Assembly: GCA_913055645.1 (NCBI GenBank) | Contig: CAJXLC010000008.1 | Span: forward strand, 1-64,000 | From: an uncultured Pseudomonadota bacterium | Lineage (GTDB): Bacteria > Pseudomonadota > Zetaproteobacteria > Mariprofundales > Mariprofundaceae | Direction: 5' to 3' | DNA length: 64,000 nt | Notes under the pieces: generated by a model | The model's database searches: none | Seen by the model: the letters and a program-made list of their open reading frames with translations, nothing else | Told to the model about the DNA's origin: nothing | Position numbers and translations under genes: made by a program | Shown here: one piece after another, positions 130 to 62,776 of the stretch | Layout of the letters: every line of letters begins with the position of its first letter | How positions within the stretch are numbered: the first letter of the stretch is position 1

Positions 130-361
130 GCGCAAATGTAACTATTCAGCTCACCACTGATTTACACAAGTTATGCGTTGAAAAATGCTCACGTACAAGA
201 AGTACGCTGCGCTTTTTCGCCTTGATCTTGGACAAATCGGCGGCAATCTGAACAGTTACTTCACAATGCTGAATAGCGACACATGCCGCGTTGTGAAAAC
301 CGAACGAGTGAATAACAAATGATAAAATGCATCATTTGTTATTCAAGAGTCACGCGCAAAT
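130..361. mobile_element. Composite MITE-like element with 8-bp target duplication
   Basis: The element occupies 138-353 and is flanked by the direct repeat GCGCAAAT (130-137 and 354-361). Its first part (138-259) is the roughly 120-bp palindromic unit found at 44136, 46261 and 61927, with ends GTAACTATTCAG and CTGAACAGTTAC. The second part (about 268-353) is a different unit containing a perfect 15-bp stem, TGAATAACAAATGAT (311-325) with its complement (333-347). The 8-bp repeats lie outside both units, so the pair appears to have inserted as one. This accounts for most of the gene-free 1-401 stretch; no transposase is present. Confidence 0.75.
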
Positions 362-4977: not shown

Positions 4978-4987
4978 AAAACTTATA

Positions 4988-5057
4988 GACTGAGGAGCAC
5001 TGCGACGGTTTGAAGATCAAATCGCTAGGCTCAGTCGCAAAATGTTTAACTGTGCTC
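4988..5057 (+). promoter_or_regulatory. S-adenosylhomocysteine (SAH) riboswitch
   Basis: GACTGAG (4988-4994) pairs perfectly with CTCAGTC (5030-5036) as P1. An inner hairpin CGGTTTGA/TCAAATCG (5006-5024) follows. GAGCAC (4995-5000) can pair with GTGCTC (5052-5057) as a pseudoknot. The conserved blocks GAGGAGC.CTGCGAC and AGGCTC match the SAH riboswitch class known upstream of ahcY genes. Known members switch the gene on when SAH accumulates. The location 5' of ahcY makes the assignment strong. Confidence 0.85.
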
Positions 5058-5098
5058 ATATTTTTTATACCTGAAAAGGTACATATAGGAGTATGAGA

Positions 5099-44127: not shown

Positions 44128-44266
44128 GATTTACGGTAACTATTCAGTTTACCGCTGATTGACCCAAGCTCTGCGTTGAAAAAATGCTCACGTACAGGAA
44201 GTAAGCTGTGCTTTTTCGTCTTGATTTTGAGTCAATCAGCGGCAATTTGAACAGTTACGATTTACG
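44128..44266. mobile_element. MITE-like element with 8-bp target duplication
   Basis: The 123-bp unit at 44136-44258 has ends GTAACTATTCAG and CTGAACAGTTAC and is a long imperfect palindrome. Exact direct repeats GATTTACG lie at 44128-44135 and 44259-44266. It separates the aminotransferase from folD. Confidence 0.85.
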
Positions 44267-46260: not shown

Positions 46261-46389
46261 GTAACTATTAAGCTTACCACTGATTCGCCCACGCTCAGCG
46301 TTGAAAAATGCTCATGTACAGGAGTACGCTGCGCTTTTTCGTCTTGATCTTGGGTAAATCAGCGGCAATCTAAACAGTTACAAAAGTAA
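46253..46389. mobile_element. MITE-like element with 8-bp target duplication
   Basis: The unit at 46261-46381 starts GTAACTATTAAG and ends CTAAACAGTTAC. Exact repeats AAAAGTAA lie at 46253-46260 and 46382-46389. It sits between gcvT and gcvH. Confidence 0.85.
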
Positions 46390-46409: not shown

Positions 46410-46784
46410 ATGAGTATTCCTGCGGATTTAAAATATACCAAAGAACATGAATGGGTGCGCATCGAAGGCGATGTAGCGACCTTTGGTGTGTCTGATCATG
46501 CGCAAGAAGCTTTGGGCGATATTGTGTTTGTAGAATTGCCTGAAATCGGACGCACTGTGGATGCGGCGGAAGCTTATGCCGTGGTTGAATCTGTAAAAGC
46601 AGTCTCTGATGTGTATGCACCTGTGGCAGGTGAAATTATTGAAGTGAATGAAGCACTTGAAAGTGAGCCCGAAAAGGTGAATACCGAGCCTTACGGCGCA
46701 GGTTGGATTGCCAAGGTGAAGATGTCAGGCAATGCGGACGAATTGATGTCTGATGATGAATATGCCACATTTTTAGAAGAATAA
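46410..46784 (+). CDS. gcvH: Glycine cleavage H protein
   Basis: This 124-residue lipoyl carrier of the glycine cleavage system has the lipoylated Lys in VVESVKAVSDVYAP (near residue 64). GGGAGGGG precedes the ATG. It is separated from gcvT and gcvPA by repeat insertions. Confidence 0.96.
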   Translation: MSIPADLKYTKEHEWVRIEGDVATFGVSDHAQEALGDIVFVELPEIGRTVDAAEAYAVVESVKAVSDVYAPVAGEIIEVNEALESEPEKVNTEPYGAGWIAKVKMSGNADELMSDDEYATFLEE

Positions 46785-46884
46785 ATAAGAGGCAATCTGA
46801 ACAGTTGTGAGCTATGTAAATGCGCATACTGAATAGCGACTCAAGTCGCGTTGCAAATACCTAGCGATTGAGTAACAATAAATA
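46780..46884. mobile_element. Variant repeat with 8-bp direct repeats
   Basis: The unit at 46788-46876 joins the last bases of unit A (GGCAATCTGAACAGTT) to part of unit B (CTGAATAGCGACTC...CGCGTTGCAAATACC) and ends GAGTAAC. AATAAATA flanks it at 46780-46787 and 46877-46884. The left end lacks the usual GTAAC terminus, so it may be an internally deleted copy, and the AT-rich flanks could match by chance. Confidence 0.55.
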
Positions 46885-61342: not shown

Positions 61343-61927
61343 TTATTTAGAAAGCTTTTCTGCCAATATTCGTAATGCCCGCCCACGATGAGAGACGGAG
61401 GCTTTTTCTTCAGGTGTTGAAGATGCAAATGCCTTGTCCAGTTCAGGGCAAAAAAATAATGGATCATAACCAAAACCAGAATCTCCCACTGGTTTTTTCA
61501 GTATTTCTCCATCAACTTGAGCTTCACAGCTTAGATCTGTCGAGCTATCAGGGTATGCCAAGTGCAAAGCACAGATGAAATGGGCGCTGTGATTGTCTTT
61601 ACCGTTCAAGAGCTCCAGCAATTTGGCATTATTCTCGCTATCTGTAGCAGTCTCTCCTGCGAAACGTGCCGAATAAATGCCTGGCGCACCGTTTAAAACA
61701 TCGACACATAAACCTGAATCATCGGCGAGTGCAGGCAGGTCATTCGCCTTAGCAAAGGCTTCGGCCTTTTTGCGAGCATTGCCCGCAAAGCAATCGGCAT
61801 CTTCTTCGACATGCACAAAAGCAGTGGCATTGGCAGGGACAATTTCAATGCCTAAATCACCAAGGATTTCTGCAATTTCTTGGCGTTTTTTAGCATTATT
61901 GCTGGCAATGATAAGCTTGTTCAACAT
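61343..61927 (-). CDS. rdgB: dITP/XTP pyrophosphatase (RdgB/HAM1)
   Basis: It removes non-canonical purine triphosphates. The motifs are IIASNNAKKRQEI at the N-terminus, ALADDSGLCVDVLNGAPGIYSARFAG, and GFGYDPLFFCPE. The 194-residue length is normal. The start codon abuts a MITE insertion: its 8-bp target duplication spans the first codons, and there is no ribosome-binding site immediately upstream. Confidence 0.95.
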   Translation of the reverse strand: MLNKLIIASNNAKKRQEIAEILGDLGIEIVPANATAFVHVEEDADCFAGNARKKAEAFAKANDLPALADDSGLCVDVLNGAPGIYSARFAGETATDSENNAKLLELLNGKDNHSAHFICALHLAYPDSSTDLSCEAQVDGEILKKPVGDSGFGYDPLFFCPELDKAFASSTPEEKASVSHRGRALRILAEKLSK

Positions 61928-62056
61928 GAACTATTCAGCTCACCACTAATTTGCCCAAATTCTGCGTTGAAAAATGCTCACGTACAGAAAGTAAGCTGCG
62001 CTTTTTCGCCTTGATGTTGAATAAATCAGTGGCAATCTGAATAGTTACGTTCAACA
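61919..62056. mobile_element. MITE-like element inserted at the rdgB start codon
   Basis: The unit at 61927-62048 has ends TGAACTATTCAG and CTGAATAGTTAC. GTTCAACA is duplicated at 61919-61926 and 62049-62056, and the following T extends the match to nine. On the minus strand both copies read ATGTTGAAC, the start of rdgB. The outer copy keeps the probable original ribosome-binding site (GGGAAG). Confidence 0.85.
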
Positions 62057-62057
62057 T
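61935..62057 (-). CDS. 40-codon ORF created by the MITE upstream of rdgB
   Basis: From the displaced ATG (62057) the frame runs through the MITE for 40 codons and stops at TGA 61935-61937, 7 nt before the rdgB ATG. GGGAAG lies 7 nt upstream of the displaced ATG. It may act as a coupling ORF for rdgB; the peptide itself probably has no function. Confidence 0.45.
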   Translation of the reverse strand: MLNVTIQIATDLFNIKAKKRSLLSVREHFSTQNLGKLVVS

Positions 62058-62071
62058 TGAATAGCTTCCCG

Positions 62072-62776
62072 TTAATTGTTTTCTAACCAAGCTTTTAATT
62101 GCGTTGGGTTTCCTGAAAATCTACGACCATCGCCTGCAATAATGGTTGGCGTGCCATTAATACCAAGCTTTCTAGCCAATGCGATATTCGCGTCTATAGG
62201 GGTCTTACATGTGCCTTTTGGTAGAGATTTCCCTTTTAGCATGACATCAAGCATGGCTTCATGCTGATTTTTAGCGCACCAAATGGATTCGCTCTTTGTA
62301 CGTGCATTGGGGTGAATGCTCTCTAGAGGAAATAAAAATGAATAAAATTTGATGCCTGTTGCTCCTTTGAGAGAAACTTCAAGCTTTTTGCAGTAAGGGC
62401 ATTCTGGGTCTGTGAAAATCGCTACGGGTAAACCGTTGGGGTCTCCTGATACAATAGCTTGATTTAATGGTAGAGATGACCAGTCAATTTTGTTAATTTC
62501 TTGTAAGCGTTGAGCGGTTAAATCTTTTCGTTGCGCCGTATCAAAAATATGACCACTGGCGATTAAATGTTTGCCTGTACGGTCGGAATAAAAAATTTGC
62601 CCGCCTACTTTTAATTCATAAAGCCCAGCGATAGGGGATGGCTGAATAGCATCAATAGGCAATGAAGGAATATTTTCTCGAATTTGCTTGGTAATCGCTG
62701 GTGCAACATTAACGCTATCAGCCGCCCAAGCAGTGCCATTTATTAAACCTATCAATAATATGATTGCAAAACGCAT
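62072..62776 (-). CDS. dsbC: DsbC-like periplasmic disulfide isomerase
   Basis: This 234-residue exported protein has a signal peptide ending at WAAD, an N-terminal dimerisation domain, and a thioredoxin fold with active-site CPYC at residues 126-129 and the cis-Pro loop GTPTIIAGDG. A second cysteine pair (WCAKN and GTCKTP) is also typical. It isomerises wrong disulfides in exported proteins. Confidence 0.93.
   Translation of the reverse strand: MRFAIILLIGLINGTAWAADSVNVAPAITKQIRENIPSLPIDAIQPSPIAGLYELKVGGQIFYSDRTGKHLIASGHIFDTAQRKDLTAQRLQEINKIDWSSLPLNQAIVSGDPNGLPVAIFTDPECPYCKKLEVSLKGATGIKFYSFLFPLESIHPNARTKSESIWCAKNQHEAMLDVMLKGKSLPKGTCKTPIDANIALARKLGINGTPTIIAGDGRRFSGNPTQLKAWLENN

What the first reader, a model, noticed from the sequence alone, without database searches (positions are those of the whole stretch)
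61919..62057. MITE insertion splits rdgB from its ribosome-binding site and duplicates the start codon
The target duplication includes the rdgB start, so ATGTTGAAC occurs both at 62057-62049 and at 61927-61919 (minus strand). The likely original Shine-Dalgarno GGGAAG now serves a 40-codon frame through the MITE that ends 7 nt before the functional ATG. rdgB may therefore be translated by termination-reinitiation, an unusual outcome of transposition.
Basis: partly seen in the sequence, partly recalled or inferred. Interest (0 to 1): 0.68.

Follow-up and report, generated by a model that had tools for sequence, protein, structure and literature searches.

The report
Miniature transposon inserted at rdgB start
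A 122-base mobile DNA repeat landed on the start codon of a nucleotide-repair gene in a marine iron-bacterium relative, leaving the original ribosome-binding site in front of a new 40-codon mini-gene that stops seven bases before the repair gene, so the repair gene is probably now translated by hand-over of ribosomes; the insertion is well supported, the hand-over is not yet tested.

Summary
A 122-bp MITE (minus strand, 62048-61927) sits between the old Shine-Dalgarno and the start of rdgB in a Mariprofundaceae (Zetaproteobacteria) genome. The genome carries about 30 copies. Ends are GTAACTATTCAG...CTGAATAGTTAC with 8-bp target duplications, matching IS66-family (ISBst12-group) insertion sequences.

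Correction: the family duplicates 8 bp (TGTTGAAC), so the A of the downstream ATG is not ordinary duplication. This copy ends TTCA instead of TTAC. Those two bases are half of its four private changes, and they rebuild ATG: either an atypical 9-bp duplication or later restoration of the start.

The 40-codon frame is real, but it is the MITE consensus frame, open in 10 of 28 copies, so the frame itself is not evidence of selection. Termination-reinitiation fits: 7-nt gap, the only plausible Shine-Dalgarno precedes the small frame, and the rdgB start is buried in the MITE hairpin. It is inferred, not shown. Single case; moderate interest.

The parts
61927..62048 (-). MITE copy, 122 bp: left end GTAACTATTCAG (62048-62037), right end CTGAATAGTTCA (61938-61927; family form CTGAATAGTTAC)
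62049..62056 (-). left copy of the 8-bp target duplication TGTTGAAC
61919..61926 (-). right copy of the 8-bp target duplication TGTTGAAC
62064..62069 (-). ancestral Shine-Dalgarno GGGAAG of rdgB, now in front of the 40-codon frame; conserved as GGAAG in G007, G002, G001
61935..62057 (-). 40-codon frame ATG TTG AAC GTA ... AGC TGA from the old rdgB start through the MITE; no Pfam match
61927..61928 (-). altered last two bases of the element (AC in the family, CA here) that complete the rdgB ATG
61343..61927 (-). rdgB (Ham1p_like, XTP/dITP pyrophosphatase), 194 aa from ATG 61927; TTG at 61924 is an alternative start
62072..62776 (-). dsbC-like gene upstream, 14 nt before the old rdgB start

Best explanation
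An IS66-type (ISBst12-group-like) MITE transposed into the dsbC-rdgB junction, between the Shine-Dalgarno and the coding sequence of rdgB, and duplicated TGTTGAAC (shown by sequence and by the empty site in a relative). The old Shine-Dalgarno and ATG now start a 40-codon frame that runs through the MITE and stops in its right terminal repeat, 7 nt before a rebuilt rdgB ATG (shown). Ribosomes that translate the small frame open the MITE hairpin and, on terminating, reinitiate at ATG 61927 (or TTG 61924), which has only a weak, badly spaced Shine-Dalgarno of its own and is otherwise paired in the hairpin (inferred). rdgB is therefore probably expressed by termination-reinitiation, likely at a lower level than before (inferred).
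For: Empty site in G007, same gene order and same 14-nt spacing. Family of about 30 copies with 8-bp duplications. IS66 transposase copies with the same ends: L094 in G007 ends GTAACTATTCAGC, and L134 in G042 has GTAGTCGTTCAG / GTAACCGTTCAG ends with an 8-bp duplication at 7 of 8. Shine-Dalgarno pairing -4.3 kcal/mol at 8 nt for the small frame against -2.8 at 13 nt for rdgB; rdgB ATG unpaired with probability 0.01, against 0.98 in the empty-site sequence. Hairpin z-score -4.6. In-frame TAG 6 nt upstream of ATG 61927 excludes an upstream in-frame start. No promoter-like match inside the MITE. Gap +7 is within the -8 to +10 taken as predictive of reinitiation in Huber et al. 2023 (PMC10666635). 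rdgB is single copy and intact.
Against: No expression data. The consensus frame of the MITE is open anyway (10 of 28 copies), so the uORF may be incidental. In E. coli reinitiation drops quickly with distance (by 5-70% already at +2 nt), so coupling at +7 may be weak. The GGGAAG Shine-Dalgarno is itself modest: -4.3 kcal/mol is reached by roughly 10-25% of random positions of the window. The copy is recent (two private changes outside the end), so an intact rdgB does not prove that it is expressed.
Confidence: 0.6

Rival explanations
1. rdgB is initiated independently at ATG 61927 or TTG 61924, using weak GGTGA complementarity in the MITE's right arm; the 40-codon frame is incidental.
For: GGTGA lies upstream; relatives G001, G002 and G004 appear to start at the TTG codon; the frame is open in many unrelated copies.
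Against: Pairing is weak (-2.8 kcal/mol) and 13-16 nt away; the start is almost fully paired in the predicted mRNA fold.
Confidence: 0.22
2. The insertion mainly acts on the mRNA: the MITE hairpin in the dsbC-rdgB transcript is cut by RNase III or hinders ribosomes, so rdgB is largely silenced; the gene is intact only because the insertion is recent.
For: Strong hairpin, z -4.6; RNase III cleavage of Correia elements in transcripts is described (PMC10969869); only 2 private changes outside the element end, so the insertion is young.
Against: A start codon was kept or rebuilt against the family's end sequence; the single-copy rdgB is conserved (dN/dS 0.15 between G000 and G007, mostly before the insertion).
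Confidence: 0.15
3. The left ATGTTGAAC and the preceding CTATTCA belong to the extended-left-end form of this MITE (GTAACTATTCAGCATGGTAAA added on the left), and the match with the rdgB start is chance.
For: Some copies carry a 21-nt extra left end with their duplication outside it (L014, L018, L027).
Against: GGAAGCTATTAA (G002) and GGAAGTCATTAA (G007) precede rdgB in relatives that have no MITE there; 8 of 8 bases match next to the short end but only 3 of 8 next to the extended end.
Confidence: 0.02

Closest known systems
IS66 family, ISBst12 group (for example ISDge4 of Deinococcus geothermalis, PMC12898284)
   Same: Ends: ISDge4 GTAACTGCTCAGCA / GTGACTACTCAGCA against GTAACTATTCAG here; 8-bp direct repeats.
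   Different: This element is 122 bp without a transposase; no IS66 transposase was found in its own genome assembly.
Chunjie MITE of Geobacter uraniireducens, inserted in an operon without disturbing it (cited in PMC10969869; the paper itself is not held)
   Same: MITE within an operon, neighbouring genes intact.
   Different: Here the insertion falls between Shine-Dalgarno and start codon and creates a leader frame; different element.
Correia elements and other MITEs in transcripts (PMC10969869)
   Same: Hairpin-forming MITE in a transcript that may alter expression.
   Different: Effects described there include IHF binding and RNase III cuts; 'start codon' does not occur in that review's text.
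Translational coupling by termination-reinitiation; engineered bicistronic leaders (PMC6728339, PMC10666635, PMC5995908)
   Same: Short first cistron with the Shine-Dalgarno, stop close to the second start, structure opened by translation.
   Different: Made here by a transposition; untested.

Membership tests
MITE (miniature inverted-repeat transposable element) | short (<600 bp), no transposase gene | tested here: met
   122 bp; the 40-aa frame has no Pfam match
MITE (miniature inverted-repeat transposable element) | terminal inverted repeats | tested here: met
   GTAACTATTCAG / CTGAATAGTTAC; 24-nt arms 83% complementary here
MITE (miniature inverted-repeat transposable element) | multiple dispersed copies with target duplications | tested here: met
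   about 30 copies in the genome; perfect 8-bp duplications at a dozen of 53 copies
MITE (miniature inverted-repeat transposable element) | empty site in a relative | tested here: met
   G007
IS66 family / ISBst12 group derivative | ends beginning GTAA | tested here: met
   GTAACTATTCAG; same ends beside IS66 transposase genes in L094, L099 and, with mismatches, L134
IS66 family / ISBst12 group derivative | 8-bp target duplication | tested here: met
IS66 family / ISBst12 group derivative | mobilised by an IS66 transposase | not testable with these tools
   no IS66 transposase (PF03050) in this assembly; fragments in G004 and G007
Termination-reinitiation coupled gene pair | stop-start distance about -8 to +10 nt | tested here: met
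   +7 nt (range)
Termination-reinitiation coupled gene pair | downstream expression depends on translation of the upstream frame | not testable with these tools
   needs reporters or profiling

The most novel reading that the evidence does not exclude
A transposition that hit a start codon was rescued: the element's terminal AC became CA, rebuilding the ATG, and the gene passed from direct initiation to obligatory reinitiation behind a transposon-encoded leader frame, so a MITE made a translational control unit in one step plus one small repair.
Probability: 0.25. Interest if true: 0.6.

Novelty: new member of a known kind. Interest (0 to 1): 0.36.

Why it matters
It is a clean natural example, with a MITE-free relative for comparison, of a mobile element separating a gene from its ribosome-binding site while a fortuitous frame keeps ribosomes flowing to the gene. 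If the coupling is shown, it would be a simple route by which leader ORFs and translationally coupled genes arise. It also documents an IS66-type MITE family in Zetaproteobacteria, for which no description was found in the searched library.

Tried and rejected
Extended-left-end reading of the duplication: rejected, the leader sequence GGGAAGCTATT.A is ancestral. Promoter in the MITE: no promoter-like match inside it. Selection on the 40-aa peptide: not supported, the frame is generic to the family and the copy's changes include several amino-acid changes. Misassembly: judged unlikely because the copies differ by 10% or more and each has its own flanks. RNA family for the hairpin: none in Rfam at gathering threshold. 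Recurrence of the same arrangement: no other one of the 53 copies has a long frame starting within its target duplication.

Full report
Where it is. The window is contig C8 of a 1.88-Mb, 56-contig genome. The closest named relatives by RdgB are Mariprofundaceae MAGs, so the organism is a zetaproteobacterium. On the minus strand the order is a thioredoxin-like gene, a dsbC-like gene, rdgB. dsbC ends with TAA at 62074-62072.

The observation. ATGTTGAAC is found twice, at 62057-62049 and 61927-61919, and between the copies lies a sequence with inverted ends. A search of the genome gave about 30 related copies, roughly 75-89% identical to this one. The family ends are GTAACTATTCAG and CTGAATAGTTAC, and the flanking duplication is 8 bp: perfect at L003, L015, L019, L025, L018 and L027 in this genome, and at several copies in relatives. 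It also occurs in seven other species of the genus and in some other genera of the order. It is a MITE.

Empty site. In G007, the nearest relative (RdgB 89-90% identical), dsbC is followed by TAACTGGAAGTCATTAA-ATG-TTAAACAAGCTT with no insert. The window reads TAACGGGAAGCTATTCA-ATG-TTGAAC-[MITE]-ATGTTGAACAAGCTT. G002 has GGGAAGCTATTAA before its rdgB. So the upstream GGGAAGCTATTCA is the old leader, and the old rdgB start was ATG 62057. The stop-to-start distance before insertion was 14 nt, the same as in G007.

Parent element. IS66 transposases (PF03050) were not found in this assembly, but fragments occur in G007 and G004. The G007 copy (L094) ends with GTAACTATTCAGC, the same 13 bases as the right end of the MITE read inwards in its family form; a copy in G041 (L099) ends the same way. 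In G042 (L134) a stretch of about 1.7 kb that holds the transposase domain is bounded by GTAGTCGTTCAGAGACCCC and GTAACCGTTCAGAGACCCC, with GTAGATTC / GTAGACTC outside. ISDge4, an ISBst12-group IS66 element, has ends GTAACTGCTCAGCA and GTGACTACTCAGCA and 8-bp repeats (PMC12898284). The MITE is therefore best read as an IS66/ISBst12-type derivative.

The start codon. With an 8-bp duplication and the family end TTAC, the expected junction is TTAC-TGTTGAAC, which has no ATG; only the TTG that follows, which appears to be the start in G001, G002 and G004, would remain. This copy instead ends TTCA. Of 53 copies, 45 end TTAC and only this one ends TTCA. Against the other copies in its genome it has only four private changes, and two of them are these last two bases; by simple counting (my calculation, 7140/8783390) this would happen in about 0.08% of random placements of four changes. 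Either the insertion made a 9-bp duplication with a lost base at the element end (L018 also shows a 9-base match with an altered end), or the ATG was restored afterwards under selection. The data do not separate these.

The 40-codon frame. It is as described: ATG TTG AAC GTA ACT ... GTG AGC TGA, then ATAGTTC, then ATG. The same frame is open in the family consensus (37 codons to the TGA in the right end) and in 10 of 28 copies of the genome. An insertion in this frame next to a start codon therefore gives such an ORF without further change. The peptide has no Pfam match.

Translation. The old Shine-Dalgarno pairs with the anti-Shine-Dalgarno (E. coli sequence assumed) at -4.3 kcal/mol, 8 nt before the small frame. 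The rdgB start has only -2.8 at 13 nt. In the predicted mRNA fold the rdgB ATG is unpaired with probability 0.01, against 0.98 in the sequence without the MITE; the hairpin is 4.6 standard deviations stronger than shuffles. A ribosome on the small frame would open the hairpin and terminate 7 nt from ATG 61927 and 10 nt from TTG 61924. Distances of -8 to +10 nt are treated as predictive of termination-reinitiation by Huber et al. (PMC10666635), although in their E. coli pairs efficiency already fell by 5 to 70% at +2 nt. Upstream in-frame starts are excluded by the TAG 6 nt before the ATG. Termination-reinitiation is thus the most likely way, at about 0.6, with reduced expression likely. This is inference.

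How unusual. In a mechanical ORF survey of 30 copies, the MITEs lie mostly in intergenic regions, often between genes in the same direction, and several stand 14-36 nt before a downstream start, which leaves its binding site intact. No other copy examined has the start of a long frame in its duplication. It is a single case without recurrence.

Verdict. Observation confirmed; insertion history strongly supported; the translational consequence plausible and untested. It is a good small example of a known kind of event.

Noticed in passing
window 138-277, 44136-44259, 46261-46381, 46779-46806: Further copies or fragments of the same MITE family in the window.
   Followed up: partly
L014, L016, L018, L027 (G000 copies): A variant of the MITE has 21 extra bases on the left (GTAACTATTCAGCATGGTAAA), so two tandem left ends; in L014, L018 and L027 the 8-bp duplication lies outside the outer end, which suggests that the outer end was the one used.
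   Followed up: partly
L008, L010, L016, L021 (G000 copies): The mechanically predicted stop codon of a neighbouring gene lies inside the MITE end, so the element may supply gene ends.
   Followed up: no
L018 right end (C12:7305): Another copy with a 9-base duplication and an altered terminal base (TTAT), like the rdgB copy.
   Followed up: partly
window 4986-5064 (+): SAH riboswitch (RF01057, 47.1 bits).
   Followed up: no
G039 (same order): Very many first-look candidates (456) for this MITE in one genome, a possible large expansion.
   Followed up: no
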